This document shows, piece after piece, positions 5,053-24,954 of a stretch of 34,767 bases of DNA. Position 1 is the stretch's first letter, and each line of letters begins with the position of its first letter. The notes beneath the pieces are model-generated. The model saw only the letters and a list, made by a program, of their open reading frames with translations. It was not told the origin of the DNA and did no database searches. The DNA is from a virus. Position numbers and translations under genes: made by a program. The stretch spans positions 1 through 34,767 of the IMG/VR virus record IMGVR_UViG_3300035670_006607; one strand, given 5' to 3'.

Positions 5053-5634
5053 ATGGCAGTTAATGTTTCTAACATTATCGTTGGCGAAGCAACCATTAAA
5101 CTCGGTACAAACGCTAACGCAACAACCATTGCAGCAATGAACAACTTTGCTGACATTGGAGCTACCCAAAACGGTTTGGAAATTTCGTGGGAACCAGACA
5201 TGGTTGATATTGAAATTGACCAGTTTGGTGATGCAGCAAAAATCATTCAGTCAAAAGTTAAGGTAATGGTTAAGACAACCCTCGCAGAAGGAACTCTTAA
5301 CAACCTTGCAACAGCATGGAACTACGACAGTGAGACGGGCGGAGATTCAATCCAAGCAAACAATGACGGTGCAAACACACAGACATTCTTGTTTGGTGCT
5401 CAGGGTGTAATTCCTTACGAGAAGGCACTTGTTGTGACAGGTACAGCACCTGGTTCAACAGCAGGCGACTTGCTTACCCGTAAGTTCTACACAAAGCGTG
5501 CAATTTCAATGGAATCATCCACAATTGCAATGAAGCGTGCAGAGGCAACAATGTTCACTGTGGGCTTTAGAATTTTGCCAACAGTAGCCGATGTCGGTTA
5601 CGAATACGGCAAGATCGTTGACGAAACCGCATAA
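5053..5634 (+). CDS. Major tail (tube) protein
   Basis: A 193-residue protein with the features of siphovirus tail-tube subunits: an N-terminal VGEATIKLG strand, a GATQNGLEISWEPDMVDIEIDQFGD segment typical of the family's early beta hairpin, KVKVMVKTTLAEGTLNNLA, and a late RAEATMFTVGFRILP strand. It would stack as hexamer rings around the tape measure protein. A strong Shine-Dalgarno (TAGGAGGAAG) precedes ATG 5053. Codon choice is more GC-ended and uniform than in the neighbours, as expected for a very abundant virion protein. A 17-bp hairpin follows the stop. Confidence 0.85.
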   Translation: MAVNVSNIIVGEATIKLGTNANATTIAAMNNFADIGATQNGLEISWEPDMVDIEIDQFGDAAKIIQSKVKVMVKTTLAEGTLNNLATAWNYDSETGGDSIQANNDGANTQTFLFGAQGVIPYEKALVVTGTAPGSTAGDLLTRKFYTKRAISMESSTIAMKRAEATMFTVGFRILPTVADVGYEYGKIVDETA

Positions 5635-5740: not shown

Positions 5741-6046
5741 TTGAGCGATAAAAATAAAGACATTCTTGCTGGCACAGAAATCGTGTTCGCAGATGGAAAG
5801 ACAAGAACAATTAAGCCTTTGACAATTCGTAATCTTAGAAAGTTTATGAAGGTCGTTAAGGACCTTAAGAGCGAAGACACTCTTGATGACAAGGATATTG
5901 ACATCATGGTTGAGGCTGCTGGAATTGCTCTCGCAGCGGTTGACCCAGAGTTGGGCAATGATAGAGAGAAGCTGGAAGATGTGCTTGACTTGCGTTCATT
6001 CGGTGAACTCATGTCGGCTGCAATGGGTTCAGACCCTTCCTTCTAG
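5741..6046 (+). CDS. Tail assembly chaperone (G-type, unshifted product)
   Basis: A 101-residue acidic, helical protein between the tail-tube and tape measure genes, the invariant place of the lambda G-like chaperone. The start is TTG 5741, preceded by AAAGGA (5725-5730); the ATG at 5730 meets a stop after four codons. Features are KTRTIKPLTIRNLRKFMKVV, then a Leu/Asp-rich helix bundle (EDTLDDKDIDIMVEAAGIALAAVDPEL) and LRSFGELMSAAMG. The protein coats the tape measure protein during tail assembly. It ends at TAG 6044-6046 unless ribosomes shift into the -1 frame. Confidence 0.78.
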   Translation: MSDKNKDILAGTEIVFADGKTRTIKPLTIRNLRKFMKVVKDLKSEDTLDDKDIDIMVEAAGIALAAVDPELGNDREKLEDVLDLRSFGELMSAAMGSDPSF

Positions 6047-6372
6047 GCGAAGAGGGGGCTGGTTCATCTGACCAATCTTGGGAAGATCTCCCTCTTCTAA
6101 AATACGAATCGGAAGTATTTGTCAGAACGGGTTCTTGGGTGAATTTTGAATCACTTGAGACCCATCTGACATTGAATGAATTATTTTTATTATATCGTGC
6201 TTGTATGAATGAAACAAGTACAGCAATGAAAATTGCTGCTGCTGCACAAGGTGCAGATGTTGACTTTGATGATGACTGGTACGATCCAGAACCTCCTAGA
6301 GCTGCGCAGGCGCACGACATTCTGGATATGAAGTTTGGAATGGGATACGAGGTTGTAAAGAAAAGTGAATAA
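5741..6372 (+). CDS. Tail assembly chaperone, -1 frameshift fusion (GT-type)
   Basis: The -1 frame relative to the G-type gene is open from 6007 through 6372 and has no ribosome binding site or convincing start of its own; the GTG/ATG codons inside come after a well-formed coding stretch. Joining at about 6034-6040 gives some 210 residues: after SDP comes FLLGEEGAGSSDQSW, then FESLETHLTLNELFLLYRACM and a C-terminal part ending YEVVKKSE. Acidic DFDDDWYDPEPP follows the helices. This matches the lambda G-GT arrangement, where the minor fusion bridges the tape measure and tube subunits. The exact slip codon is uncertain; 6034-6040 is inferred. Confidence 0.75.
6034..6097 (+). promoter_or_regulatory. 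Programmed -1 frameshift signal
   Basis: Candidate slippery site CCCTTCC (6034-6040) in the reading C CCT TCC; the P-site tRNA can re-pair on CCC. The zero-frame stop TAG follows at 6044. Eight bases past the site starts a hairpin: GAAGAGGG (6049-6056) pairs perfectly with CCCTCTTC (6090-6097), extendable by a G-U and a G-C pair, loop 29 bases. Placement is right for a stimulatory structure. Confidence 0.6.
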
Positions 6373-6419: not shown

Positions 6420-9400
6420 ATGTCTGACACTGGTGACTCAACAACACGAATAGGTATAGATGCATCTGTTACTGGTGCTGACTCCGTTGCTGGTTTAACA
6501 TCTGGTGTTGCTGCACTTGCTCAGCAACTAGTATCACTGTCTGCAAATGCAACAAAAAGTTTTTCTGTTCAAGAAAGCTTAAATGCAGCTCTTGATAAAA
6601 CAAGGGTTAGAACTGGCTTAATTAGTTCATCACTTAATGAATACAGAAAGAATACTGAATTAACAAACAGAGTTCTTAAAGAAACTGAAAATAGATTAAA
6701 CGCAGTAGCGGAGGCTCAAAAGAGAGCTAAACTTAGCGGCTCTTTGACCCCAACAGCACAGGCTGGTTATAGGCAAACTGAAGCCCATTTAAATTCTGTA
6801 AAGAGTTCTGTTAATACAATCAATTCAATAATGAAAGGAAATGCTATAGAGCAGTTTGGTAATAAGATGAGGATAGCTGGGCAGAGATCTCAGCAATCCG
6901 CATACTATATGACTGCCGCTATTTTGCCAGTGTTTCTTGCATTCAAATCTGCATTTTTTAACTACACAAGACTAGAACAAGAACAGGTCCGAGTAACAAA
7001 GTTGATTGGAGACAACTTTTCTGGGATGATTGATGGTTCTGCTAAGTTACAGAAGGAACTGGATAAGATCAATACTGGTCTTGACAAGATAACTGGTAAA
7101 TTCGGAACATCTAGGATTCTTCTTCAAGGTCTTGCTGGAGACTTTGCAGAACTAGGTCTCCCCAGTTCAGAAGCCATTGTTAGGTTAACTGAGATAACAG
7201 CGGCTGCTGAAAAACTGGGTAACTTGGATATCTCTGCTTCACAGACTTTTATTCAATCTCTCTTTCAGAACATTGTTAGGGTAAGAAGAGATATGGCGCA
7301 GGCATCTGGTGAAGCTTTTGATATTTCAGATGTGAAAACATTAGGTAAAGTTCTTGATGAAGTACAAGGTCAATTAGCAATTTTTAACTTAATTGAAAAC
7401 AAAACATCGCTGTCATTGAAAGATATAGCGGATGCATTCCCAGAAGTGTCTGGTGCGGCAACATCATTTGGTTTGTCAATGACGGAAACGGCAGCATTGC
7501 TTACTCCGATGGTTGCGGCAGGGTTTCAGGTTGGAGCATCAGCAAACTCAATCAAGGTTTCGCTACAAAGACTTGTGGCTATGACTAAGCAAAATACTCA
7601 AATTATTCAAGATTTAAATTCAGCCCTAGGACCAGAGTTTAACATGGCAGCAGATGTTGGTATGAGAAGTATTCAGAGATTGGTTGATGGCTATCAGGCA
7701 TTAAGAGATATGAAAGGTGAGCAAGGTGCTCTTGAATACTTCTCTCGCCTTTTTGGTGTGCGTCAGGGTCCAAGAATGGAGGTCGCCATTCAGCAAGTTG
7801 CTGCGTTTCAAGCGGCAATGAATGTGGCGGGTAGTGCTGAAGAAAAAATATCTAGACAGCTAGAAGAGAGTGTTAATAAAAGATTAACAGCTCAAGGTTA
7901 CGAAGCGATACAAATTAAAAAAGTAATAGATTTAACTAATTTACACAGAGCTTCTATTGCTGAAAATAATGGTGAGTATACAGAGCAAGCAAAACTGATT
8001 CAACAAGGTCAAGCGGAAGCTGATGCTGCAATGAGAAAAGCCTACTCAGACAGTTCTGACTATATTGCAAAAATTGGAACTGAGAGCGGTAGAGAGTTTA
8101 TGATGCAGGCTATGGGTGGTGTTGAGCTTGCAAGTAAGATAATGCAAGAAGAACTTAATCTAACTATTTCAACAGTAGCTACAAAGTTTAATATATTGCG
8201 TGAATCATTTCTTGGCATTGGTCGTGCTCTAGTACCAATTGTTGGTGTAGTAATTAAAGCACTATTGCCTATAGTGCAAGGCATTCAAAAGTTTTTAACA
8301 GGTCTTAGTGAGGGAACCAGGAATGTTATCGGTGGTCTTCTCCTGTTCGCCCTTATTATACCTCAAATGAGATTGGTTGCCGCAACATTCAAACTTGCAT
8401 TTGGTGGAACTATTGCTCAATTTGGAAAATTAATATTTGGAGCGGGCGGTTTTTTGAAAGCGCTGCGGGGTGTAAAAGCCGCCGCTGTTGATATTGCAGA
8501 TGTTATCAATAACCCATCAATACTAAAGGGTTTCAATAAGATGACTCAAATTACTGACAGTAAAGTTATTCTGTCACAAGACCCAACGGCACCAGGTTAT
8601 AGCAAAGGATTTTTTGGAAGAAGAAATATGCGACCACTCTCCACAGACGGTCTATCTCAGCCAATAAAGGAGTTGTTTGATAAGGAAGGAATTGTTGGTC
8701 CAACAGATAAAAAATCAATTAAATCTTTACTTGATAAGATGTCAAAGATTGGTTTGACAAATACAGATGAGCTAGTCAGATCAATGCTTACAGACATGGG
8801 AGATGTTCCCGAAAAAATTGCAACCGCAAGTACAAAAGCTACAGAAAAAGCAGCTACGAGTACAGCAGATAAACTTACGAAAGCAATGAAAGGTTCTATA
8901 TTCCAAAACAATACATTTCTTGGAAACAAGTTTGGAGGCGGAACTTCTGGCACTGGTGGACCAGGTGCTGGACCACGCACTCCAAAAACTCCAACAACAG
9001 GTGGAACACCAACAGGCGGAGTGCCAGTTGTACCAACACCATCTACACCACGATCAACCACTTCTAGCAGGTACTTTACAGACCCAAGATTTGATCAAGC
9101 AAGTGCGAGAAGGATATCAATTCCATCAGCAAAAAATGTAGCAAAAGCTGCAACTATTGGCGCACCTATTGCAGCAACTGCTGAGAGAATGGCGGCTGAA
9201 GCTAAGGCTCAATTGGATGCGTTGGGTGTTACCGTTCAAGAAGAAGTTGCAAAAGCTACTAAAGTTGTCAAAGAAGCTACTAAGCCAAAAGGAAAGTCAC
9301 CTCGTGGTTCACCAAAGCAAGTAAAAGCAACAGTTGAAAAAACTGTTGGTGAGGCTGTTAGTACAGCAACTGCACCTATAACAGAGGCAGTTGAGGCAGT

Positions 9401-12400
9401 AACAGAAGCATCAACCGAAACTCCTAAGAAAATTGAGAAGGCTGTTAAAGAAGTAAAGAGTAAAGCTGCAACGCCAAAGGGCGGTGCTAAAAAAGCAGTA
9501 AAATCTGTAAAGAAAGTTGCTGAACAAGCAGTTGTCGCAGTAGAAAAAACTGTTGCTGGAGTTGCTGAAGTTGTGGATAGTTCTGCAGCAGCTCAGGCTG
9601 CAGTTGAAAAAGCAACAAGTCAAGTTGGTAAGGCTACAAAGGTTGCTTCAAAAGTAGCAAAAGCCCCAACTGGACAAGCCGCTATTGTAAAACTTTCGTA
9701 TAAAGAAATTGCTAAATTCTTTGATGATGCGGGACAAGCTATTCCAGCTGAATATGAATTTATTAGAACTACTAATAAAGAAGTTGAATTAACTAAGAGA
9801 GCAAAAAATCAATTCTTCCAAAATCTTACAAAGCAATTTGAAAAAGGATCAACTACGCCTCTTGGAGCATTAAGCCGCCCTGGCGGAAGACCGATATATA
9901 AAATATTTAATAAAGAAGTTAACGCTCAAAAAGATGCGTATAAGTCTCTTGTTGATGAACTTCTTGTTGATAGAAGATCGCTGGAACAATCGGTAAAAGT
10001 AAAAGATCAAATATCATCAACATTGTCACAAATGCTTCAAAAAGGAGGCGGCACTCCTGCAACTACATCAACTGGCGGAATGTCAAAAGCCGCTGCTAGG
10101 CGATTGGCTGCAGAGAAGAAGAGGGCACAAGAAGCAATTGTAGCAATGAATGCAACAGAAGCATTAAAGCTTGACGCAATGCCAGGTGGTGCCCCTCCTT
10201 CTGGTGTTGAGGAGATATATACAACAAGACCTAAAGCTGAAATTGCCGCAATAGAGAAGAGTTTGGCTGAGGCAAAATCTAATTTGAAGATTGTAGAAAA
10301 GGAAGGTACTGATGTCGCTAAACAGCTTAGTGCCACCTATAGAAAGCAAATAGATGATCTTAGAGAAGAGCTGTTGCTGGCTAGATCTGCAATCCATGAA
10401 AGATTAATTCCTGCATCACCAGCAACATCTCAATTGCTTAACGCTCAAAATAATTTAATGAGAGATGAGTCTCCGCTTCAAAACTTAACAAGTGGTAGGA
10501 CACCAGCAGGTGTTGGTATTGGACCAGATAATCCAGTTAGATATGCAAATCAATTCTCAGATCGTGTTGGCAGTATGCCAAGGGTTGTAAGCAAGCCTGG
10601 TGGAATGTTTGAGCCGAAAGTACCTGTTTCTCTAAACCCAGATATTAGAGCAAAAATATTACATGATCTTGAGATAGAAAAATTAAGTCAACGATTAATT
10701 GAGTCTACTGACGCAAGTATTGCAAAAGATTTGAAATCTCATATGGCTGATTTGGAAGATGAATTTAAGCTTAAAGGCAAGTCAAAAGCTGCCCTTAAAA
10801 AAGCAGCTGCTAGGCAGATGGCTGAAAATATGGGTGTTGATTTAACTAAATACCTCCCAACATCAGATGAGTTTGATCCCGCAGCTGAAGCCGCAATATT
10901 GAAAAATAAAAAAGTTGTTGATGGTGTAACACAGTTTTATAAAGGAATAGAGCATGGTGGTGACGAACTTGTAGCGGAACTTGCAGGCATGAAGAAAGAT
11001 GTTTCTCCTGCAAGCACTTCAGCTAGAGAAAAACTTGCAAAAGCTTTCATAAGACAAAGAGAGGCGATAAGCCCTTCTGACTCTGGCGGTAGAACTGCAA
11101 GCCCAATCAGAAAAATAATTTCTGGTGGAATGGGCAAGGCTAAAGCTGGTGTTGTTACAGTCGGGAAGTTAATTGAAGACTCTATTAATGAAACAGTAAA
11201 TGCACTTCCAGCCTCTATTTCTGATGCTAAAAGACAATTGATTAGGGCTACTGCAATAGCGGTAGCTTCACAGCAACCAGGCGCTGCAGTTGGCGAGGCT
11301 CTTCAGGGCGGTCTTAAATTAGTAGATCAAGAATTAACAGAATCTCAGGCTAAAGTCGTAAAGGGCAGACTTGATTTGATGAGAAAGCAAGTTCTTGATT
11401 TGATGGGCAAAGATGTTGCTGGTTTTAAAACAGCAACTATAACTGACAGTAAAGGCAAGATAACAAAATTTGTATCAGACGCTAAATCTAAAGCTGGTGT
11501 TCTTTTAAATAAGCTTGCAAAAGGAACTGCTCTATCTGTAAGTGATTTAGGTAAAGCTGTAGAGGGTGTATTTGTTGATTCTATGGGGGCTGCATCCTAT
11601 GCAGTAACTCAAGTTGAGAAAACAAAGAAAGGCTTTAGGGGTTTCCAATTCAAGGACATGGTTGGTCGTGTTAAAGAAACTCTTGACGCAAGAGTAGCAG
11701 CAGGAACCAAAGCCCAAGCTAGCGCCGCAAATGTTGGCAGTGGAACTGCAGTTGGCAATCGTGCCGCAGAAAGACAAGCCGCAAAAGAAGCTCAAAAGGT
11801 TGCACAGCAAAAGAGTAAAGAAGAAGCAGACCAAATTGTAAGAGATATCCAAGCCAGAAAAGCTGGAACTGCTGCGGCAGAAGTGAAAACACAAGCTACG
11901 GTTGCTGAGACTGCGGCTACAAAAGTTGAAACTGAATCCAAGGTTAAGAATACAGCTGCTACTGAAGTTGAAGCTGCAGCTAAAACAGAGGCTGCAGTTG
12001 TAGAGAAAGCCGAAACCGCTTCTACAACAAAACTTACTGGTGCAAAAGAAGCTTTGACTGGCGCAACGGCAAGGGGAGCGACTGCGGCTACTGTTGACGA
12101 GCAAATTACAAAAGCACTGGGTGAAACTAAAGTAGCTCAAATTGCTAAACTACAAAGCCAGATTGCAACAATGACTGCCGAGCAGTTGGCATCTGACGCT
12201 GGTGTGAAAGTTCAAGATGCTCAAAAAGATCTTAAGACAAAATTAAATACTTTAACTAAAGCTCAGATTAAACTTACTGAAGCTCAAGCAAGTGCTGATG
12301 CAGCAGGTCGTTCTTCAACATCTGCTTTAAAGACGGCAAAAGAAAGATTTGCATCAGCAACACGAAATGCAAAAATTGCAACTGACAAGCTTGCTAAGGC

Positions 12401-15400
12401 AGTAGCTGCCGCAGCTGTAGATGTTGCTGCAGTAGCGCCAGCTTTAACAAGTTCTGCATCTACTGCGGCTTCTGGATCTAGTGCGGGGTCAGCTGGCACA
12501 CCTAAAGCTCCAAGAACACCAAGACCAAGAACCCCTGCTGCTGCAATACCTGCGTCTGCTAGTGGTGGTAGTGCAATTGTTAAAGCAATTGAAAAGCAGA
12601 CATTGCAGTTTGATAGCTCCCTTGCTAACTTCTTTAAAGGACCGAACTTCTTCCAGGGTCCAAACATTTTCCAAGGTAAATTGATTAGTGCAGATAAGTT
12701 AAATCTTAAGATTAAAGATTCTGCAAAAGCAGCTAAGGATGCAGCTAAAGCTTTACCTGCTGATGACCCATTGGTTGTCAAAGCAAAAGCTAGACAAAAT
12801 TATAAGACACTAAAAGACAGAATTGAATCAAGAACTGGTGTCCCTCTATCTGAAGAAAGGCTTGAGAGGCTTAAGAGATTAACTGGTGTAAGAACACCGA
12901 CAGCACTGCCTGCTGTTATGGAAGATGCTAGAGCAGCTAGGGCAGCAACAAGAGCTGCAGACATTCGTGCTCGTGTTTTGAGCAGTGTTGCTGCATCAAG
13001 AGCAGCTACCGCTTCATCTGGGGCTAAGGCTGCATTTAGAGGCATGGACATGTCCAGTCTTGACAAGGTTAAGAGCAAGCTGAGTTCATTTAATAAGATG
13101 ATAACTGGTTCAATTGCTGGTGGATTTAACAAGGGCTTCTCTTTGGCTGGGAATGGTTTAACAAGATTTGCACAGTTGTATGTCAAGACAATGCTAAGTA
13201 CAGCCGCATCTGGATCACAAATGTCAATGAAAGTAGCTCAATCAATGACATACCTATTGTCTGGCGGGAAAAAGTATGTTGAGGAAATTGCCGTTATAGG
13301 GAGAGCATTCCAGATGCTTGCTGCTATTAATAAAGTATCAATGGGTTCAATGAAAACAAGTGCAGCGGAAACTGCTTTTGTAATGAAAGCTCTTGGGACA
13401 GTTATTAAGAGTGAAGTAGCGCCAGCATTTACGCAATTACTTGCTTCATTAAAAAATAGTAAAATCATAAAAGCATGGTCATTCCTATTATTTACTGGAA
13501 TGAACAGAGTTGCTGGTGCAATAAGGGCGGCTAGCGTTGCAGCTGGCTTATTCTCATCTAATGCAACAAGAATGGCTGCTGTTGGTAAAGCACTAGACGC
13601 TTACAAAGCAAAGAGGATCGCTGCTGGATTGTCAGAAACAATTCCGCTTTTCCAAAGACTCATTATTCAAGCTAGCGCTTACACTGGAATTGGAAAAGGC
13701 TTGCGATCAATATTTTCAAGTTTGACCAAAACATTATTTGCCGCTATAGCAATGGCTATTAAGTTAAATGCGGCGATGTTATTAATAGCGCCCGTGTTTA
13801 TTCTCATAGCGGGTTTTGTCATGTCAATGAGATCAGGTTTAGTTAAAAACACTGCTGCAGTTGACAACTTTAAGCAAGCCTGGATTGCTATAAAAGATGC
13901 AATTGTAACTTTAGCAAAACCATTGATGGATATGATTGGCACTTTTGGTGGTTTAGGAAAAGCAAAAAATGGAGCTGATGGTGTATCTGGTGCTCTTTAT
14001 ACCATATCAAGATTGGTTAAGCATGTAGCGGATAGGTTCAATGACTTCGCTCATAGTACTGGTATGAGATTTATGGTGGAAAAAATTGTTCCTGTCTTGA
14101 CAAGAATGATTAATAGATTCATTCTACTCGGCAGAACTATCTCAGGTGTATTTAGAGGCGATGCGGGGGCTCTTAAGAATTTTAGAGGTCTATTACTGTC
14201 ACTTGCATATGAAGCAGTTAATTCAATACAGAAGATATTTGGGTTCTTAGCCAGTTTGCTTCCAAAGTTAGGACCATTACTTTCTTCTATAGTTGAGGCA
14301 GTTCTGAATGCAACAATTGATGCATTCATGTACATAATGAATTTCGGAAAAGAAGTTGCGTTATTCTTTGGATCAATGATGGTTGGTATAGGCGGGGTTC
14401 TTGCTTTCTTCACTGGACCTGCAGGAGCAGGTGTAGCTCTTATGGGTGCAGGGCTTATAGCTGCTGCTGGTGCCGCACATCTTCTTGATAAAAATATTGG
14501 AAGAGTTAAATCTGGAGTCAAGGGTGTTTCTAAAGCTATTGGAACTAATGTTGCTCAAGGTCTTGGAGCTGGGGCTGGTTATATAGAAAAAAATATTCTT
14601 GGAAGAATAAAAGGCGCTATTGCCGAGCAATATGGAAAAGATATTGGAGCTGATGTAAATGCGGCTCTTGCGGTTCAACTGTCGGATCCATCAGATGTTA
14701 AGAAAGCACTCAATAATGCATTAGATGGAGCTTCTGAAGATCCAGCTGCTGCAAACGCAGCGGGTGAGTCACTAGGTCAGGCGATTGCAAAAGGCATAAA
14801 GGACAAATTAATTTCACTAAAAGAAGATTTTGCTGGGGCATTCTTTGGTAAAGCTGATGACCAAGTAGCCAGAATTACTGATAAATATAAAGATGCAATT
14901 GACAAGCAAAAAGAAGAGGCGCTAAAGGCTTTTGACACTCAAGTTTCTGCTATTGAAGCGCTTGGTAAAGCCGAAGAAGAACTTACGGCAAAAATGGATT
15001 ACGAAGAAAAACGCCGTGAAATGATTAGATCAAGGGCTCTAAATAAAGAAAATTATTTAAGAGAAAGAAAAATTGCAAAGTATGAAGGTAGAACAGAAGA
15101 TGTTCGTTCGCTAGACCTTTCCTTTAGAAAAACAGATAAAGAAGCGGGCAAAGAGATAACAACCTTAGATACAGACAGGGCTAAGACACTCCAGGAACAA
15201 CAGAGATCAATTGCTATTGCAGTTATTAATCGTGAAAAAGAAATAATGGCTGCAACATTTGAAGAAATGGAAAAGCAATTTGAAGAGAATCTTGAAAAGA
15301 TTTTGAATAAAGGTTTTTCAACAAAAGAAGAATTTAATGCTCTGTTAAATGAAATTGGCGGTGCCGCTCAAGGGTTCTCTGGTGAAATAAGTAATGTATT

Positions 15401-18400
15401 TGAGGGTGCAATGACATCCTTGCCATCAATAATAAGAAGATCAACCGACCCAGCAGTTGGAATGTTCAGTATGACAATGCAAAAACTTGTTGATCAAGCC
15501 GCACTCTCTTTTGGTGCAGAAGTTAGAACTGGCGATCCAAAATCAATACTTGGTTCTGCATATGCAATGGCAAATGGAATGCCAGACGCATTCAAACAAG
15601 CATTTAGTGATGGAGTTATTTCTGAGTCTGTCACGCCTTTTATTGCAAAGATTTCAACAATAATGGGTGATGTAAATGTTGATGCAATTTGGATTGAGGC
15701 TGGTAGATCTGCCGTTGAGTCAATGATTGCCGAAATGAAACGAAAACTTCGTGGTCTTAAGGGTGATTTGTACGATGAATTTAAAAACCTGTTTGCGGGA
15801 ATGAGCGCTGAATATAACCAACTATTCCCAACCCTAGAGAAACTTGCAAAAGAAATTGCAAGAATTGAGGCAATTAGGTCGCAATCGGGAGGTGGGGCTG
15901 GAGGTGACACGAAAGCTCCAGGCAGTGGTGGTCTTAAGGATACATTGACTACAGATAAAGTCATGATTAAATATGGTGAGCATCTTGCAAGAAGACCAAC
16001 AGAAGGTCTCATGCCAGAAAATAAGGGAGACTTCTCTTTCTTTGGAATGTTGATTGAAGGAGCGAAAAATCTTGCAAAAGCACTCGGTCCTGTAAAAACA
16101 GCAATCCTCGGTGCTGTTGGTGTAATTGCTGGATTTATGATGCTGAAAGGTTTGTTTGTAATAATAACTGGAGCATTTGAAACACTAATGCTCGCAGCAA
16201 TGTATGCCGTACAGCCTGTTGGTGCTGCGCTGGCTGGAATAAGCGCAGTTGGTCTTGCTATTGCTGCTGCGGTAGGAGTTGTAGTCGGCGTTATTGTTTA
16301 CATGTACATTAAATTTAAATGGTTTAGAGATATGGTCAATGACACATTTAAGAGTGTAATTGATTTCTTTGTAACTGGTTTCCAAATGTTGAAAGAACCA
16401 GTGGCTGGGTTCCTTGGCGCAGTTTTTGATGGTGTTAAACAAATTCTTAGTTCATTGTTTGGACCAATTATTGATTTTGGCAAAAAAGTTGTAATGGGGA
16501 TAGTCGGGGCAATTGCTGGAGTTGTTGTTGTAATAGTTGGTGCGCTTCGTGGAATAACAATGGTGTTTGATTTTATCAAAGTTCCACTATTTAAATTTAT
16601 TGGATTCATAATAGATATGGCTTCTGGGATAGTAAGCGTTCTTGCAGACATTATCTCTGGAGCAATTGACTTTATTTACAAGATCATCGGGGCGCTCTTT
16701 ACAGTTGGAATTGGCGGTCCAATCAAACTTATTGTTGAAGCATTCAAGCTTGCGTTTGACATTATTGTTGGAATAGTAAAGACAGCTATTGATTTGATTG
16801 TTAAGGCGTTTGATCTCCTTAAGGGTCCACTATCTGGTCCTTTTGAATTTGGTTTTGAAATTATTAAGGGAGTTTTTGACAAGATAAAGGATATTGTTTC
16901 TGGAGTAATTGATTTTATAAAAGGAATTTTCAGTGTTCTTGATTTGGGAGATATTACTGGTCCGATTATTGCGCCATTCAAATTCTCATTTGATATTATC
17001 ACTGGAATACTTTCCGATGCCTTTGGCTTGCTCAAGGGCACCCTGGAATCAATAACTGGGGTTGTTATCTCAGCGTTTAGTGCAATAACTACTAACCCAG
17101 TATTTATTTGGATTAGAGACTTCTTGTTTAGAGTTTTAATGTTGGGTATTTTTATTGTGGCTATGGCTCTTCAAAATCTTTTCTTTGCGTGGAAAGGTAT
17201 ATTTACAAAACTTATTGATATTATGAAGCCAGTAGGGTCGTTTATTTTTGATGTTCTTAAGGGTGCATTTGAAGTTTTGAAAGAAGTTATTTCAACGATT
17301 GGTGATATAGCATCCGCCGCATTCGGATTTGTAAAAGATGCTGTTTCTACAGCGTTTACATTTATTTATGAAAAAGTAAAAGGTTTTATTGATTGGTGGC
17401 ATGAGAACATCGGTTCGCTCTGGTTGATATTTGTTGCAGTATTTGCAATTATGTATGAAGGAGCAAAAATGCTCTTCAATTGGATGAAAGATACATTTGG
17501 ACCAATTCTTGCAAAAGTGTGGGATGCATTTAAGGATGCTACTAGTGCCGTATGGGATCTTATGAAGCAAGTTGGATCCTGGATTGGTTCGGTATTCACT
17601 GCTGCTTGGGATGTTCTTAAAAAAGCAGCGTCATTGTTCTGGGACTACCTAGGTTTGGCTATTACTTTTGCATGGGAGGGTATGAAGACAGTAGCTTCCT
17701 GGATAAGCACTGCATTTGGCGCTGCCTGGGGAGTGTTGAAGAAAGCAGCCTCTTTGTTCTGGGATTACCTTGGCGAAGTGCTTCCATTTGCTTGGGAGGT
17801 TATGAAGAAAGTAGCCTCTTGGATTGGAACAGTATTTTCAAAAGCTTGGGATGTTATAAGTGTTGTTGCAACAAAAGCTTTTGAAATTCTCGGTGATGCA
17901 ATTAGTTTTGTTTGGGAAACAATTACTGGAGGATGGAGCACTATCCGACCAGTTTTGGAAACAATTGGTAATTTTGTTCGTGATGTTGTTACTAATGCAT
18001 GGGATGTTTTGGTGTATTCTGTAAAAGCATTTTGGGATATTATTAAGTTTGGTTGGAGCGTAACTAAGCCAGCACTTGACGGTCTCTGGGGAATTATCTG
18101 GAAAGTGATCAGCCCAGCTGTAAAAATCCTTGGTCAAACTTTCGGTTTCTTATGGGATGGAATCAAAGCAGCGTGGAGTTTTGTTGAGCCAATCTTTAGT
18201 GCAATGGTTGATGTTATTTCAAACATTCTTTCTCCTGTCGTAGATCTGCTATCCACGCTGTTCCAGAAAATTTGGGATGGGATCGTTGCTGGATGGGGAT
18301 TGGTCGGTCCAGTTTTTGAATTGATGGTTGATATTATTATGAACGGTATAGGATACGCAATTGATGGGGTGAAAGTTATTTGGGACTTACTCTGGCAGGG

Positions 18401-19484
18401 GATAGTTGCTTCTTGGAATTTCCTCAGTCCAATATTTGGTTTTATTGTTGATATTATCGGAATCGGCATTGGGTATGCAATTGAAGGAGTAAAAGTCGTT
18501 TGGGATCTGTTCTGGAAGGCTATAAAATCTTCATGGAGCTTCCTCAAGCCGATATTTGATTTCATTGTTGACGCAATTAAGACTGGCATTGGATTTGCAA
18601 TTGATCTGGTAAAACAAGGCTGGGACATCTTTGTTGCAGTGCTGAAAAATACTAAAGACTTCATCGTTGGCATAATTCAAACAATTGGAAATTGGATTAA
18701 AGAAGGCATTCAATTTGTAATTGAGAAAGTGATAAGCGTATGGAATGGGCTGAAAGACGCATTCAGTGCCGTGTGGACATTTATTCAACCAATTATTTCC
18801 AAGATCGGAGACATGATTAAGAATGTAATCGGTGGAGCTATTGATTTCATCAAAGATGGATTAGGTAAGCTTGGAGATGCATTCAAGGGATCTGTAAACT
18901 TAATAATCAAATTGATTAATAAGATGACAGGGTTCTCTTTTACAATGCCAGATTGGTTAAAGTACATTGGTATGGGTAGTATCGCTGGTAAGACATACAG
19001 TTTCAGAGATGTAATTCCAGCAATTCCTGAATTGTATAATGGCGGAAAAGTTGGAATGTATATGAAGGGTGGTATGGCATACGGCTCTGGCGGTATGACA
19101 GATGGTCCAGCACAGCAAGGTATCCCTGCCATTTTACACGGTGGTGAGTATGTAATTAATCATAAAGCGGTTAAGAGAATCGGTACTGACACGCTAGATA
19201 GGCTTAATAACTATAAATTATCTAAACCAAACTTCCCAAACATGCCAAATGTCCCAAGTATTAACTTGCCAAATATGAGCATGAGTAAGCAAGCTTACGC
19301 ACAGCCAAGTGGTTCCTCAACACAGAATGTAAATATCTATGTTGACAACTTCATTGGCGAGCCAGAGTGGTTTAATTCAATGATGAAGAGCTACAACACT
19401 ACTGTGTTACCAAGAAATCAAAAAACAGCGGGTCTTGAGAGTAGAGTTATTAATACATATAATGGTTTAAATAGGGGTCTGTAA
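6420..19484 (+). CDS. Giant tape measure protein
   Basis: An uninterrupted 4354-residue protein that would set tail length and travel with the DNA into the host. The start is typical (TRIGIDASVTGADSVAGLTSG). A TP901-type tape measure core lies at about 224-471 (GLPSSEAIVRLTEITAAAE, LKDIADAFPEVSGAATSFGLSMTETAALLT). Hydrophobic membrane-type segments occur near 590-665, 2440-2470, 2650-2690 and 3220-3300. Residues about 840-2060 are an Ala/Lys/Thr/Pro-rich insertion. A charged coiled coil spans about 2820-2970. Residues about 3690-4110 hold a 40-residue tryptophan repeat. The C-terminus has GGMAYGSGGMTDGPAQQGIP and HGGEYVINHKAV, found at the end of many actinophage tape measures. At 0.15 nm per residue the tail would be about 650 nm. 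Translation probably lacks a Shine-Dalgarno. Confidence 0.9.
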   Translation: MSDTGDSTTRIGIDASVTGADSVAGLTSGVAALAQQLVSLSANATKSFSVQESLNAALDKTRVRTGLISSSLNEYRKNTELTNRVLKETENRLNAVAEAQKRAKLSGSLTPTAQAGYRQTEAHLNSVKSSVNTINSIMKGNAIEQFGNKMRIAGQRSQQSAYYMTAAILPVFLAFKSAFFNYTRLEQEQVRVTKLIGDNFSGMIDGSAKLQKELDKINTGLDKITGKFGTSRILLQGLAGDFAELGLPSSEAIVRLTEITAAAEKLGNLDISASQTFIQSLFQNIVRVRRDMAQASGEAFDISDVKTLGKVLDEVQGQLAIFNLIENKTSLSLKDIADAFPEVSGAATSFGLSMTETAALLTPMVAAGFQVGASANSIKVSLQRLVAMTKQNTQIIQDLNSALGPEFNMAADVGMRSIQRLVDGYQALRDMKGEQGALEYFSRLFGVRQGPRMEVAIQQVAAFQAAMNVAGSAEEKISRQLEESVNKRLTAQGYEAIQIKKVIDLTNLHRASIAENNGEYTEQAKLIQQGQAEADAAMRKAYSDSSDYIAKIGTESGREFMMQAMGGVELASKIMQEELNLTISTVATKFNILRESFLGIGRALVPIVGVVIKALLPIVQGIQKFLTGLSEGTRNVIGGLLLFALIIPQMRLVAATFKLAFGGTIAQFGKLIFGAGGFLKALRGVKAAAVDIADVINNPSILKGFNKMTQITDSKVILSQDPTAPGYSKGFFGRRNMRPLSTDGLSQPIKELFDKEGIVGPTDKKSIKSLLDKMSKIGLTNTDELVRSMLTDMGDVPEKIATASTKATEKAATSTADKLTKAMKGSIFQNNTFLGNKFGGGTSGTGGPGAGPRTPKTPTTGGTPTGGVPVVPTPSTPRSTTSSRYFTDPRFDQASARRISIPSAKNVAKAATIGAPIAATAERMAAEAKAQLDALGVTVQEEVAKATKVVKEATKPKGKSPRGSPKQVKATVEKTVGEAVSTATAPITEAVEAVTEASTETPKKIEKAVKEVKSKAATPKGGAKKAVKSVKKVAEQAVVAVEKTVAGVAEVVDSSAAAQAAVEKATSQVGKATKVASKVAKAPTGQAAIVKLSYKEIAKFFDDAGQAIPAEYEFIRTTNKEVELTKRAKNQFFQNLTKQFEKGSTTPLGALSRPGGRPIYKIFNKEVNAQKDAYKSLVDELLVDRRSLEQSVKVKDQISSTLSQMLQKGGGTPATTSTGGMSKAAARRLAAEKKRAQEAIVAMNATEALKLDAMPGGAPPSGVEEIYTTRPKAEIAAIEKSLAEAKSNLKIVEKEGTDVAKQLSATYRKQIDDLREELLLARSAIHERLIPASPATSQLLNAQNNLMRDESPLQNLTSGRTPAGVGIGPDNPVRYANQFSDRVGSMPRVVSKPGGMFEPKVPVSLNPDIRAKILHDLEIEKLSQRLIESTDASIAKDLKSHMADLEDEFKLKGKSKAALKKAAARQMAENMGVDLTKYLPTSDEFDPAAEAAILKNKKVVDGVTQFYKGIEHGGDELVAELAGMKKDVSPASTSAREKLAKAFIRQREAISPSDSGGRTASPIRKIISGGMGKAKAGVVTVGKLIEDSINETVNALPASISDAKRQLIRATAIAVASQQPGAAVGEALQGGLKLVDQELTESQAKVVKGRLDLMRKQVLDLMGKDVAGFKTATITDSKGKITKFVSDAKSKAGVLLNKLAKGTALSVSDLGKAVEGVFVDSMGAASYAVTQVEKTKKGFRGFQFKDMVGRVKETLDARVAAGTKAQASAANVGSGTAVGNRAAERQAAKEAQKVAQQKSKEEADQIVRDIQARKAGTAAAEVKTQATVAETAATKVETESKVKNTAATEVEAAAKTEAAVVEKAETASTTKLTGAKEALTGATARGATAATVDEQITKALGETKVAQIAKLQSQIATMTAEQLASDAGVKVQDAQKDLKTKLNTLTKAQIKLTEAQASADAAGRSSTSALKTAKERFASATRNAKIATDKLAKAVAAAAVDVAAVAPALTSSASTAASGSSAGSAGTPKAPRTPRPRTPAAAIPASASGGSAIVKAIEKQTLQFDSSLANFFKGPNFFQGPNIFQGKLISADKLNLKIKDSAKAAKDAAKALPADDPLVVKAKARQNYKTLKDRIESRTGVPLSEERLERLKRLTGVRTPTALPAVMEDARAARAATRAADIRARVLSSVAASRAATASSGAKAAFRGMDMSSLDKVKSKLSSFNKMITGSIAGGFNKGFSLAGNGLTRFAQLYVKTMLSTAASGSQMSMKVAQSMTYLLSGGKKYVEEIAVIGRAFQMLAAINKVSMGSMKTSAAETAFVMKALGTVIKSEVAPAFTQLLASLKNSKIIKAWSFLLFTGMNRVAGAIRAASVAAGLFSSNATRMAAVGKALDAYKAKRIAAGLSETIPLFQRLIIQASAYTGIGKGLRSIFSSLTKTLFAAIAMAIKLNAAMLLIAPVFILIAGFVMSMRSGLVKNTAAVDNFKQAWIAIKDAIVTLAKPLMDMIGTFGGLGKAKNGADGVSGALYTISRLVKHVADRFNDFAHSTGMRFMVEKIVPVLTRMINRFILLGRTISGVFRGDAGALKNFRGLLLSLAYEAVNSIQKIFGFLASLLPKLGPLLSSIVEAVLNATIDAFMYIMNFGKEVALFFGSMMVGIGGVLAFFTGPAGAGVALMGAGLIAAAGAAHLLDKNIGRVKSGVKGVSKAIGTNVAQGLGAGAGYIEKNILGRIKGAIAEQYGKDIGADVNAALAVQLSDPSDVKKALNNALDGASEDPAAANAAGESLGQAIAKGIKDKLISLKEDFAGAFFGKADDQVARITDKYKDAIDKQKEEALKAFDTQVSAIEALGKAEEELTAKMDYEEKRREMIRSRALNKENYLRERKIAKYEGRTEDVRSLDLSFRKTDKEAGKEITTLDTDRAKTLQEQQRSIAIAVINREKEIMAATFEEMEKQFEENLEKILNKGFSTKEEFNALLNEIGGAAQGFSGEISNVFEGAMTSLPSIIRRSTDPAVGMFSMTMQKLVDQAALSFGAEVRTGDPKSILGSAYAMANGMPDAFKQAFSDGVISESVTPFIAKISTIMGDVNVDAIWIEAGRSAVESMIAEMKRKLRGLKGDLYDEFKNLFAGMSAEYNQLFPTLEKLAKEIARIEAIRSQSGGGAGGDTKAPGSGGLKDTLTTDKVMIKYGEHLARRPTEGLMPENKGDFSFFGMLIEGAKNLAKALGPVKTAILGAVGVIAGFMMLKGLFVIITGAFETLMLAAMYAVQPVGAALAGISAVGLAIAAAVGVVVGVIVYMYIKFKWFRDMVNDTFKSVIDFFVTGFQMLKEPVAGFLGAVFDGVKQILSSLFGPIIDFGKKVVMGIVGAIAGVVVVIVGALRGITMVFDFIKVPLFKFIGFIIDMASGIVSVLADIISGAIDFIYKIIGALFTVGIGGPIKLIVEAFKLAFDIIVGIVKTAIDLIVKAFDLLKGPLSGPFEFGFEIIKGVFDKIKDIVSGVIDFIKGIFSVLDLGDITGPIIAPFKFSFDIITGILSDAFGLLKGTLESITGVVISAFSAITTNPVFIWIRDFLFRVLMLGIFIVAMALQNLFFAWKGIFTKLIDIMKPVGSFIFDVLKGAFEVLKEVISTIGDIASAAFGFVKDAVSTAFTFIYEKVKGFIDWWHENIGSLWLIFVAVFAIMYEGAKMLFNWMKDTFGPILAKVWDAFKDATSAVWDLMKQVGSWIGSVFTAAWDVLKKAASLFWDYLGLAITFAWEGMKTVASWISTAFGAAWGVLKKAASLFWDYLGEVLPFAWEVMKKVASWIGTVFSKAWDVISVVATKAFEILGDAISFVWETITGGWSTIRPVLETIGNFVRDVVTNAWDVLVYSVKAFWDIIKFGWSVTKPALDGLWGIIWKVISPAVKILGQTFGFLWDGIKAAWSFVEPIFSAMVDVISNILSPVVDLLSTLFQKIWDGIVAGWGLVGPVFELMVDIIMNGIGYAIDGVKVIWDLLWQGIVASWNFLSPIFGFIVDIIGIGIGYAIEGVKVVWDLFWKAIKSSWSFLKPIFDFIVDAIKTGIGFAIDLVKQGWDIFVAVLKNTKDFIVGIIQTIGNWIKEGIQFVIEKVISVWNGLKDAFSAVWTFIQPIISKIGDMIKNVIGGAIDFIKDGLGKLGDAFKGSVNLIIKLINKMTGFSFTMPDWLKYIGMGSIAGKTYSFRDVIPAIPELYNGGKVGMYMKGGMAYGSGGMTDGPAQQGIPAILHGGEYVINHKAVKRIGTDTLDRLNNYKLSKPNFPNMPNVPSINLPNMSMSKQAYAQPSGSSTQNVNIYVDNFIGEPEWFNSMMKSYNTTVLPRNQKTAGLESRVINTYNGLNRGL
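17550..18760 (+). repeat. Strict 40-codon tandem repeat in the tape measure gene
   Basis: TGG (Trp) codons start at 17553, 17673, 17793, 17913, 18033, 18153, 18273, 18393 and 18513, each exactly 120 bases apart. A second Trp position 12 bases earlier is shared by 18381, 18501, 18621 and 18741. Adjacent units are close at the start (AASLFWDYLG twice) and in the later part (IGYAIDGVKVIWDLLW / IGYAIEGVKVVWDLFW) and diverged between, but no indel breaks the register. Confidence 0.9.
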
Positions 19485-20955: not shown

Positions 20956-23900
20956 ATGCTAGAATCTGGTTTATACGATAAAGATATATCTAACTCTTTT
21001 AATAGCGCTTTTAATGCAATATCTCAAAGTGTAAAGCCGTTAATCATGGTTGACTGGCTGGACAGTCGCCATATTGATAAGCATTCAAATACAGAAATAG
21101 CAAGTAGTAACTATACTAATTTACAAATTAGCGCTGCAACTGTAAATCAAAATGTTTCTGGCATGCTTTCTGGATCAAGACAGCTCTCTGATAACGAAGT
21201 GCTGTTCAATAGATCCAGAGGTCGGGATTTTTATTTTACTCCAAATGAGTCAATTAATGGTATAGAACGACAGTCATTTACTTGGGCGGTGTGTGACGCT
21301 AAAGATGTTAATGGGAAAGTAATTACTGCCAATGGACAATGGCACTGCCTGCCAGCAAGTAAAGATGAAAACTATGAGTTCGGCTATCAATCTTCTACAA
21401 AAAGCACCAGTACCCTTCATTCCACTTTGAATGGGTATCAGTTTTCTGACCCTGTTATTCTTACATATGTATTTGCAGAAAGAAAAGTTAATCTAATTAA
21501 AATTATATCATCAGAATACAATGGTCAAATAAAGGCTTATAACTTAAAAGCTTATAATAATACTGTTAATTTAGTATATAACGAAGATGCAGAAATACCA
21601 GATGATTCTTATTTTTTAGATCACTACCTTGAAGGTATTAATTCAAACGATATTAATAAAATTGTTTTAACAATTTATACAACAAAAAATCCTCAAGACT
21701 ACGCCAGGGTTAATGAGATGTCTCCAATTTACAGAATTGATATGACTGAATGGGTCATGAATTTTAATGTGTCTAAGGTACGAGATGTGCATGAAACGAG
21801 CCTTCCAATCGCTGGAAGCGGGAGCAATACTTCATCAGTAACATTTGATAATACTGGGAAGGAATTCAATCTGTTTAACTCCAGTTCGGATTTTGGCAAA
21901 TACATGAAAAAAGATATAAAGTTTAATATCTATGCTGGTTGGGAAATTCATCGTGCAGACTCTAATTATGTAGAAACTGTTCTTACATCAAATGTAAGTG
22001 CAGCAGATACAACATGGACCGTAAACAGCGTCAATGACCTTCCAACTGGAGGTGCTGGTAATTATTTTTTATTAACAATAGATTCTGGAAATGTTAACAA
22101 AGAGATTGTAATTGCTACAAGAGGGTCTGGTAACTCACTGACAATTATTGAAAGGGGGGTTGGGAATACGGCGGCTAGATCTCACACATCTGGTGCATCT
22201 ATAATATTTGATGTATATGAGTATGTCCCATACGGAATTTTTTATGTTGATGAATGGCAAGGTACATCATCATCAATGACTGTGAGCGCTACTTTAACAG
22301 ACAGGTCTAAGTTCGCACAAGAAAAACTTTTAACTAAAGGTTTCCTACTGCAAGAATCAACAGTTGCGGAAGCCGTAGAGCACCTATTATTGATGACTAA
22401 TTTTCCTAAAGCTGATATTCAGTACTTATCAAAACCATCTAAAACCTATAAAAAAAACAATGCTATTTTACATTATGGTTTTGATGAAAACTCAATTGAT
22501 AGAGCCAATTCTGCAAAAGTTGTATCAACATCACTCAGGGCTAGATTTGTCAAAGTCCCAGAGACTGACTTGAATTCGGTTCGTGACATCAAGTTAGATG
22601 CGAATGATAGGGAATTGAGTACATACGAAAAGGCATTAGATGTAAGGGCGTTTATTTCTCCAACACTAACAACGACAACAGCGGAGATATCAAGTAATTC
22701 TAATTTAGCTCTTGATTTTGTTTCTGGAGATTTTTTAGATAAAGATGGTAACACTGTTAACCAATATTACAATGGTGTTTTTGATGGGTATTATATACCG
22801 CCAAGCACTGGGGAATATACAATTTTACTTGGCATAGCTAGAGGTGGAGTTCGTGTTTATCTTAATAAAGTAAGAATTATTGACGAATGGATGGTTGTCA
22901 CATCGGGAACGGCTGGGCAGCAAGAAACTCTCTATTCAGAACCGATAGATCTCACAGCGGGGGTTCCCTATGAAATCAGAATTGAATTCTTTACAGAGCA
23001 ATATATTCAAGGAGAACCGTTTAAAATATCACTAGGAGTAGACCTTAATTCAGTGCAGGACAATGTGCTTGCCACTCAGTGCCGCACGATGGTAGCCAGC
23101 GACAGAATCGGAGTGAAAGACAATTCATCTTACTTAAATTTTTCATCTAATTCCTGGGCGCTTACATCAAATGTTAATGTAATAGACCGATCCGCAAGGA
23201 GAAATGATTCTTTGTATGTAGGATCGGTTAAAATATCAGAAACAAGCGGTGTTGTGTCGGATAGTCTAAGTAAGAGTATATTATTAGATTCAAACTCCTA
23301 TCTTAGGACTCCGTATCACATATCTTATGATGTGTTTAATAGCTCATCTGACTCATATACTGGAGAGTACAGCGTACAATTGTATGTTAAATTTCACAAC
23401 AGCTCATTCTCAAACGATGGAGAATATGTAAGTAATTGGAGTAACGCAGCATCAGATTCTGGTTTTGAATTTTTTAATACATCTTCTAATAATGGGTTTA
23501 AATTCAAAACGAGCACTGGTACTGCTATTATTTCTTCCAACACTGTATTATCAATATCTGAGTTTACTCATATTGCTGTAACTTACAAATCAAATTCTTT
23601 AAAATATTATATTAATGGGTCATTAGCTAACACTGTCACGACTTCTGGAACTTTAACTGCGTTTACTGGGAAAGATTTAACTTTTGGTGGTCGTGGTGCG
23701 TCATTCACGGCTGGTGCAGAAAATCCGCCAACCACAGTTAGAAGTTTTTACATTGATGAGTTTGCGATATTTAATAAAGAATTATCTGCTGCTCAAATTA
23801 AAAATGATTATATTGAAACGCAAATGCAAGAGGCGAGAGTTATGCCTTTTATATATGGTAATGATTCTTCAATACAAGAAGTAATTGACAATATAAGCCT

Positions 23901-24954
23901 TGCCGACCTAGGAAGGCTTTATATTGATGAAAATAATAAAGCAAGGTATGAGCATTTTAATAGATTTTTTGAATCTTCAATAGAGCAACATGCAAATGTC
24001 CAATACACGCTATCTGATTCTTCAAATATTATTGATGCAAGTTACAATGTACAGTTGCAAACAAATAAAGTAACTATAAAAATAAATGGAATAGCTAACA
24101 ATTTAATTCAAAAGCAAAGTTTATGGAGGGCAGAAGATCCAACGACTCTTGGCGTAACTGAGTTGTCATCGTCAATGTCAAACAATGATGTAAGTATGAA
24201 TGTGTTATCAACAGACAATCCATATTTTGCAAAATCTGGTTATTTATTAATTGACAATGAAATAGTTAAATATAGCAATACAACTAGTAATTCATTTTTA
24301 ACACTAGAAAGAGGGCAGTTTGATACATTCGCCGCATCTCATAATACAAACACTCTGGTTAGAGAAGTTAAAAACTACGATCTACTATTTGATAAAGCAC
24401 CAGCTTTTAAAATTGAAAATCCATTGATAACTAATTTAAGTACAGTCAACCCAGCCAAGATTGAATTGTTAAAATATAACCCAAACCCTTATGGTGCAAA
24501 ATTAATACTTGCGGCATCAAATAGTGTTGCAAGTGGAGATATTGTTTATATTGAAGGCGAAAACCCTATTACACAAGAAAAGCATTTTGCTGGTATTGCT
24601 GGGATACCAGTTATTGTTACAGATAATACTGGGGATGTCAAAGAACAGAAAGCGGTTCTGGAGGACAATATTAGAAGATATGGTCTTAAAGAAATTATCA
24701 TAGAAAATGAATTTATAACGGATTTAACCCATGCTCAAAAATTAGCTGATTTTATTATCAATAAAATGTCAGAGCCAGTTCCAGTTTTAAACTTAAACAT
24801 TTTGCCAGTACCCACTCTTCAGCTTGGAGACAGAATTCGCATATCAACAATGGATTCATTTGATATAATTAATGGTGATTATTGGTTGATAAGTACAGAA
24901 TTTTCTTACAGTGGAAGTCTGACGCAATCAATTGTAATTAGGAAGGTTGTGTAA
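20956..24954 (+). CDS. Tail-tip protein with PA14-like and LamG-like domains
   Basis: A 1332-residue protein that likely forms the tip or receptor-binding part of the tail. Residues about 598-697 look like a PA14 domain (YYNGVFDGYYIPPSTGEYTI, VRVYLNKVRIIDEW, GVPYEIRIEFF). Residues about 797-953 look like a LamG/concanavalin jelly roll (YSVQLYVKFHNSSFSNDGEY, FTHIAVTYKSNSLKYYINGS, FYIDEFAIFNKELSAAQI). Both folds usually bind glycans. Two copies of a tail module with an ERG.G/ERGQF core occur at about 342-424 and 1065-1141. Residues 955 on (QEVIDNISLADLGRLYIDENN) match the rear of many actinophage minor tail proteins. It starts at once after the previous stop, behind GAAGAGG. Confidence 0.75.
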   Translation: MLESGLYDKDISNSFNSAFNAISQSVKPLIMVDWLDSRHIDKHSNTEIASSNYTNLQISAATVNQNVSGMLSGSRQLSDNEVLFNRSRGRDFYFTPNESINGIERQSFTWAVCDAKDVNGKVITANGQWHCLPASKDENYEFGYQSSTKSTSTLHSTLNGYQFSDPVILTYVFAERKVNLIKIISSEYNGQIKAYNLKAYNNTVNLVYNEDAEIPDDSYFLDHYLEGINSNDINKIVLTIYTTKNPQDYARVNEMSPIYRIDMTEWVMNFNVSKVRDVHETSLPIAGSGSNTSSVTFDNTGKEFNLFNSSSDFGKYMKKDIKFNIYAGWEIHRADSNYVETVLTSNVSAADTTWTVNSVNDLPTGGAGNYFLLTIDSGNVNKEIVIATRGSGNSLTIIERGVGNTAARSHTSGASIIFDVYEYVPYGIFYVDEWQGTSSSMTVSATLTDRSKFAQEKLLTKGFLLQESTVAEAVEHLLLMTNFPKADIQYLSKPSKTYKKNNAILHYGFDENSIDRANSAKVVSTSLRARFVKVPETDLNSVRDIKLDANDRELSTYEKALDVRAFISPTLTTTTAEISSNSNLALDFVSGDFLDKDGNTVNQYYNGVFDGYYIPPSTGEYTILLGIARGGVRVYLNKVRIIDEWMVVTSGTAGQQETLYSEPIDLTAGVPYEIRIEFFTEQYIQGEPFKISLGVDLNSVQDNVLATQCRTMVASDRIGVKDNSSYLNFSSNSWALTSNVNVIDRSARRNDSLYVGSVKISETSGVVSDSLSKSILLDSNSYLRTPYHISYDVFNSSSDSYTGEYSVQLYVKFHNSSFSNDGEYVSNWSNAASDSGFEFFNTSSNNGFKFKTSTGTAIISSNTVLSISEFTHIAVTYKSNSLKYYINGSLANTVTTSGTLTAFTGKDLTFGGRGASFTAGAENPPTTVRSFYIDEFAIFNKELSAAQIKNDYIETQMQEARVMPFIYGNDSSIQEVIDNISLADLGRLYIDENNKARYEHFNRFFESSIEQHANVQYTLSDSSNIIDASYNVQLQTNKVTIKINGIANNLIQKQSLWRAEDPTTLGVTELSSSMSNNDVSMNVLSTDNPYFAKSGYLLIDNEIVKYSNTTSNSFLTLERGQFDTFAASHNTNTLVREVKNYDLLFDKAPAFKIENPLITNLSTVNPAKIELLKYNPNPYGAKLILAASNSVASGDIVYIEGENPITQEKHFAGIAGIPVIVTDNTGDVKEQKAVLEDNIRRYGLKEIIIENEFITDLTHAQKLADFIINKMSEPVPVLNLNILPVPTLQLGDRIRISTMDSFDIINGDYWLISTEFSYSGSLTQSIVIRKVV

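What the first reader, a model, noticed from the sequence alone, without database searches (positions are those of the whole stretch)
17550..18760. Exact 40-residue tryptophan period in the tape measure
Nine Trp codons in a row lie exactly 120 bases apart (17553 to 18513), and a second Trp column four residues earlier continues to 18741. Sequence between units has diverged, yet no indel breaks the register, so spacing itself seems selected. Taking 1.5 angstrom per residue, 40 residues span 60 angstrom; two units would match three tube rings of about 40 angstrom. The Trp columns may contact the tube or chaperone at fixed points.
Basis: partly seen in the sequence, partly recalled or inferred. 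Interest (0 to 1): 0.7.

Follow-up and report, generated by a model that had tools for sequence, protein, structure and literature searches.

The report
Forty-residue tryptophan repeats in tail ruler
A phage tail-length ruler protein carries nine back-to-back 40-residue units each starting with tryptophan, a repeat type already known from dairy phages; relatives gain or lose whole units, most likely because 40 residues are exactly eleven turns of a helix, not because the tryptophans touch the tail tube at fixed points.

Summary
Residues 3712-4032 of a 4354-residue tape measure protein (TMP; 6420-19484) hold nine Trp exactly 40 apart; no shuffle exceeded a run of six. Units have diverged to near-saturated synonymous sites, yet Trp-1 and the length never change. 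In uncultivated relatives the anchor-to-anchor distance is 326, 366, 406, 446 or 486 residues, a ladder of whole 40-residue steps. A second clade gives 282/322. A third sits 11 residues off. Published lactococcal 936 phages change in the array by 40, 80, 120 or 160, and twice by an additional 22 (2x11). Indels elsewhere in the TMP have arbitrary sizes.

The repeat kind is known: the 11-11-18 (=40) aromatic repeat of lactococcal phage p2. Hydrophobicity peaks at 99.0 degrees per residue (40 residues = 11 helical turns), with the Trp columns on one helix edge. Published TP901-1 deletions fail or work roughly with alpha-helical phase. I favour helix-phase-locked repeats made by tandem duplication in an oligomeric helical bundle. 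The two-units-per-three-rings idea is not supported: single-unit steps occur, a measured tube rise (41.84 A) does not fit, and a cryo-EM tail shows no obvious TMP-tube contacts.

The parts
6420..19484 (+). tail tape measure protein gene, 4354 aa
   Evidence: ORF; PHROG 58, 1272, 4200 and other tape measure families
17385..17423 (+). upstream anchor FIDWWHENIGSLW, conserved in relatives just before the array
17553..18632 (+). nine head-to-tail 40-residue (120-nt) units, each beginning with Trp
   Evidence: Tandem Repeats Finder detects period 120 only at 18315-18571
18381..18743 (+). second Trp column (unit position 37): 18381, 18501, 18621, 18741
18633..18872 (+). two degenerate units in the same 40-residue register without the leading Trp
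18723..18755 (+). downstream anchor EKVISVWNGLK
5741..6372 (+). probable tail assembly chaperone G/T pair: G ORF 5741-6046 (TTG start) and an open frame at -1 running to 6372 without a clear start codon
   Evidence: reading frames; position between tail tube-like gene and TMP; function inferred from synteny
5053..5634 (+). probable major tail (tube) protein
   Evidence: PHROG 2175 (Ig-domain protein, 4e-23), weak matches to major tail protein families

Best explanation
The array is a run of tandemly duplicated alpha-helical units in the TMP. Forty residues is a length at which an alpha-helical hydrophobic stripe closes on itself (40/11 = 3.636 residues per turn; built as 11+11+18, i.e. three hendecads and a heptad). 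Each unit therefore adds exactly eleven turns and the Trp/hydrophobic edge of the helix stays in line. Duplication or loss of 120-nt units by recombination between repeats changes tail length in whole units. Indels that rotate the helix face are removed because they would break the packing of the TMP oligomer (trimeric helical bundle in solved phage tails). Trp marks one edge of the broad hydrophobic face. Shown here: the period, the ladder, the 99.0-degree periodicity, the single Trp edge, the divergence. Inferred: oligomer packing as the selected property, recombination as the route, and effect on tail length in this uncultured phage.
For: Hydrophobicity power peaks at 99.00 degrees/residue (11 turns per 40) in 12 of 13 arrays (98.5 in the other), and at 98.75 in the adjoining non-repeat part of the same TMP, so the helix pitch is not just a by-product of the repeat. 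Unit columns 1, 8, 19, 30 and 37, where most Trp sit, fall within 324-360 degrees of the wheel; polar columns fill 9-117 degrees. Close relatives: array length 326/366/406/446/486, all 6 mod 40; a second clade 282/322. Off-ladder difference of L017 is 25.03 turns, and the alignment shows an 11-residue gap. 936 phages: +40, -80, -120, -160, and two with an additional -22 (2x11) in the array. Indels in the 1600 residues upstream are 1, 3, 6, 7, 11, 12, 18, 22 and so on; in the C-terminal region 1-4. p2 gives the same 99.0 degrees, and pure 11-residue TMPs (Genki, VPE25) give 98.25. Published TP901-1 series: deleting 40+n residues gives intact virions at n=3,4,7,9,10,11 and heads only at n=1,2,5,6,8 (PMC5099701); locked to a 3.636-residue phase this ranks 20th of 462 possible outcomes, best free period 3.5. 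TMP is a trimeric helical coiled coil in DT57C; JBD30 has TMP density read as a trimer, with a resolved C-terminal coiled coil.
Against: A sequence with period 40 can only peak at multiples of 9 degrees, so 99.0 inside the array is partly built in. The TP901-1 phase test is weak (p about 0.04) with one clear exception (n=9); the in-phase 51-residue deletion makes particles but no plaques; [quoted passage not shown] The second clade is about 36 degrees out of phase with the first. AlphaFold2 models were all helix but at pLDDT 31 and 34, so packing was not seen. Unit changes may simply follow repeat homology.
Confidence: 0.6

Rival explanations
1. Chaperone ruler: the Trp/Phe columns are docking sites for the tail assembly chaperone, which coats the TMP before tube polymerisation; the spacing equals one chaperone footprint.
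For: Published idea for p2 ORF12 (Siponen 2009, as reported in PMC3271669 and PMC5099701); a probable G/T chaperone pair lies just upstream of this TMP.
Against: TP901-1 repeat 4 replaced by 6 or 11 alanines still infects at 6-8% plating efficiency, which its authors call little impact. Many phages use period 11 instead, so 40 is not a general footprint. Unit number varies freely.
Confidence: 0.15
2. Membrane/DNA-channel role: the hydrophobic, Trp-edged helices sit near the tail tip end of the TMP, are ejected early and insert in the host membrane; the repeat is shaped by that job rather than by packing in the tail.
For: Broad hydrophobic face with Trp at its edge; p2 units look almost uncharged (sequences); JBD30 authors propose that the TMP refolds into a membrane channel (PMC11445458).
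Against: Most units here carry Asp/Glu and Lys at fixed columns (2, 5, 20, 31), unlike a plain transmembrane helix. In TP901-1 repeats 1-18 (219 residues) can be deleted with full plaquing.
Confidence: 0.15
3. Tube register: two units match three tube rings and the Trp columns touch the tube at fixed points.
For: Arithmetic only, for a rise of exactly 40 A.
Against: Single-unit steps in natural relatives; 41.84 A rise and no obvious TMP-tube contact in DT57C; full TMPs in the family differ by 6 residues (L013 v L021).
Confidence: 0.04
4. No selection on spacing: 40-residue steps only reflect unequal recombination between 120-nt repeats.
For: L030 and L002 have better preserved 120-nt repeats (79-81% matches), and homology gives whole-unit steps automatically.
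Against: Units with near-saturated synonymous sites still show no small indel, while the flanks of the same proteins have many; Trp-1 is kept in 58 of 59 units.
Confidence: 0.06

Closest known systems
40-residue (11-11-18) aromatic repeat of the lactococcal phage p2 / Skunavirus (936) tape measure protein (Siponen 2009; Belcaid 2011 pattern 2; Mahony 2016)
   Same: Same period 40, same 11-11-18 spacing of Phe/Trp, same 99.0-degree helical periodicity, same tandem array towards the C-terminal end of the TMP, same whole-unit length changes
   Different: Here the invariant column is Trp (p2 uses mostly Phe); the TMP is four times longer; units carry regular charged columns; phages are uncultivated
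Pure 11-residue Trp/Phe repeats of tape measure proteins (Belcaid 2011 pattern 1; found here in Paenibacillus phage Genki and Enterococcus phage VPE25)
   Same: Aromatic positions on one helix edge, tandem units in a TMP
   Different: Period 11, 98.25 degrees; pattern 1 is absent from the window TMP
TP901-1 tape measure protein repeats (mixed 11 and 18)
   Same: Aromatic 11/18 spacing; deletion data show dependence on residue number
   Different: Irregular order of 11s and 18s; 98.25 degrees

Membership tests
40-residue (11-11-18) aromatic tape measure repeat | lies in a tape measure protein | tested here: met
   PHROG tape measure families over the array, E down to 1.4e-34
40-residue (11-11-18) aromatic tape measure repeat | Belcaid pattern 2, [FW] at 11-11-18-11-11-18 | tested here: met
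   Match at residue 3730 in published order, two in each other rotation; p2 has 8, 8, 7
40-residue (11-11-18) aromatic tape measure repeat | head-to-tail units of 40 residues without gaps | tested here: met
   Nine units, shift score peak only at 40
40-residue (11-11-18) aromatic tape measure repeat | alpha-helical structure | tested here: inconclusive
   Strong helical periodicity; AlphaFold2 all helix but pLDDT 31 and 34
40-residue (11-11-18) aromatic tape measure repeat | aromatic columns bind the tail chaperone (proposed) | not testable with these tools
   Needs binding experiments
11-residue (pattern 1) aromatic tape measure repeat | seven [FW] in a row spaced 11 | tested here: not met
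   No match in the window TMP

The most novel reading that the evidence does not exclude
Tape measure arrays evolve in quantised steps set by closure of the alpha helix: 40 residues (11 turns) as the main quantum and 11 or 22 as the minor one, so tail length in these phages changes only by helix-phase-preserving amounts, independent of tube ring spacing.
Probability: 0.4. Interest if true: 0.5.

Novelty: new member of a known kind. Interest (0 to 1): 0.36.

Why it matters
How a tape measure protein is packed in the tail, and what its repeats are for, is still open because cryo-EM does not resolve it. Natural relatives that differ by exactly one, two or three units, in two unrelated phage groups, are a ready set for measuring tail length per unit. 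They also separate three ideas about the repeat: helix phase, chaperone docking and tube register.

Tried and rejected
Two units per three tube rings: rejected on single-unit steps, measured rise and cryo-EM. Plain chance: rejected by shuffles. Recent duplication as the reason for identical spacing: rejected for this window because units are at near-saturated synonymous divergence. AlphaFold2 on the 610-residue region and on a 230-residue part: both low confidence, so no fold search was made. An in-register alignment of 51 four-unit segments was re-gapped by the aligner and dropped. PDB sequence search gave nothing significant. Search for relatives in bacterial genomes to name a host found none. 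No near DNA match in phages.

Full report
WHAT IS THERE. The window is a 34.8-kb virus record from IMG/VR. ORF 6420-19484 encodes 4354 residues and matches many tape measure families, most strongly over the region of the finding. Nine Trp codons lie exactly 120 bases apart from 17553 to 18513, residues 3712 to 4032. The second column, four residues before, has four consecutive Trp from 18381 to 18741. Two further degenerate units keep the same register to 18872. In 3000 shuffles of the region no Trp run at any spacing from 5 to 60 exceeded six. Self-comparison of the array scores positive only at shift 40 among shifts 30-51.

AGE OF THE UNITS. Unit pairs share 8-68% of residues. Where two units have the same residue with a fourfold codon, the third base agrees in 53 of 128 cases (41%), against 35% expected from base composition. 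The units are therefore old, and the constant spacing is not left over from a recent duplication. Relatives show younger arrays: L030 has better preserved 120-nt repeats (about 79% matches).

Relatives were taken from IMG/VR with a C-terminal query and with an upstream anchor. Between the anchors F[IV]DWWHENIGSLW and EKVIxVWNGLK the distance is 446 in the window and L003, 486 in L002 and L005, 406 in L006, 366 in L008, 326 in L009 and L011. All equal 6 modulo 40. For four further length classes to agree by chance would be (1/40)^4, about 4e-7, if the classes were independent, which they are only partly because the phages are related. A second clade has 322 (L026/L022/L102) and 282 (L100/L101), again one unit apart but 4 off the first ladder modulo 40. 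A third, L017, has 315 and 355, because its end segment is itself duplicated by 40 residues; it lies 11 off the ladder, and the alignment shows an 11-residue gap in the array. In the same proteins the 1600 residues upstream have indels of 1, 3, 6, 7, 11, 12, 18, 22 and other sizes, and the C-terminal part has indels of 1-4.

THE SAME IN KNOWN PHAGES. A 40-residue repeat has been reported for the TMP of lactococcal phage p2, with an 11-11-18 spacing of Phe/Trp (Siponen 2009, as reported in PMC3271669 and PMC5099701). The published search pattern matches p2 and the window TMP. I aligned p2 with its relatives: 37201 differs by +40; 96403 by -40 twice; CaseusJM1 by -80; PhiJF1 by -120; 13W11L by -160; ASCC368 by -40, -40 and -22; FB4 by -142 (three units plus 22). 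A 3-residue difference at residue 520 lies outside the array. The more distant PLgW-1 shows +22 and -22. So the quantum is 40, with 11 or 22 as a minor step. I found no mention of this ladder in the papers I could read, but Siponen 2009 itself was not available.

GEOMETRY. With a hydrophobicity scale the power peaks at 99.00 degrees per residue in 12 of 13 arrays. That is 11 turns in 40 residues. A repeat of 40 forces the peak to a multiple of 9 degrees, so this alone is weak. The adjoining non-repeat region peaks at 98.75, and pure 11-residue TMPs at 98.25, which says that a stripe near 3.64-3.67 residues per turn is the general property and 40 is a whole number of turns for it. On the wheel the columns that carry most Trp (1, 8, 19, 30, 37) fall between 324 and 360 degrees, next to a polar arc at 9-117 degrees. 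Trp-1 is present in 58 of 59 units of the main group.

EXPERIMENTS IN THE LITERATURE. Mahony et al. 2016 (PMC5099701) removed 40+n residues from the TP901-1 repeats. Virions were intact for n = 3, 4, 7, 9, 10, 11 and heads only for n = 1, 2, 5, 6, 8; a 16-residue deletion failed. Locked to a 3.636-residue phase, this outcome ranks 20th of 462 arrangements, so it is suggestive, with n = 9 as an exception. [quoted passage not shown] the alpha-helix reading is mine. Replacing one repeat by alanines had little effect in their words (plating efficiency 0.06-0.08). In DT57C the TMP is a three-stranded helical coiled coil, the tube rise is 41.84 A and no obvious contacts with the tube wall were seen (PMC10713586). 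JBD30 has tail-lumen density that its authors read as a TMP trimer, with a resolved C-terminal coiled coil (PMC11445458).

MECHANISM. The best reading is a helical array in a TMP oligomer. Whole-unit duplication or loss keeps the hydrophobic, Trp-edged face in line; other indels rotate it and are removed. Shown: period, ladder, divergence without small indels, helical periodicity. Inferred: the oligomer interface as the selected property, recombination as the route, and the effect on tail length of this phage. AlphaFold2 gave helices at pLDDT 31 and 34 and cannot show packing. Chaperone docking and a later membrane role are not excluded and could act on the same face.

VERDICT. The tube-register idea is not supported. 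The repeat is a new member of a known kind.

Noticed in passing
window 5741-6372: Tail chaperone genes: a TTG-start ORF to 6046 is followed by an open frame at -1 to 6372 with no clear start, so a programmed -1 frameshift near 6004-6046 is likely; no standard slippery heptamer was identified.
   Followed up: partly
window 6420-19484: At 1.5 A per residue the 4354-residue tape measure would specify a tail near 650 nm, very long for a siphophage; full relatives range from about 4090 to 4650 residues.
   Followed up: partly
window 8900-12700: About 1200 residues of the tape measure are low-complexity Ala/Thr/Lys/Pro-rich sequence.
   Followed up: no
window 20956-24954: Tail-tip protein of 1332 residues with PA14 and laminin-G-like (concanavalin-type) domains, suggesting sugar binding.
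   Followed up: no
L017 and L026, near the C-terminus of the TMP: Short tandem YMKGGM-type repeats vary in number between relatives.
   Followed up: no
window 177-1019: Endolysin-like protein that also matches a tape measure family (phrog_16823) over residues 13-180.
   Followed up: no
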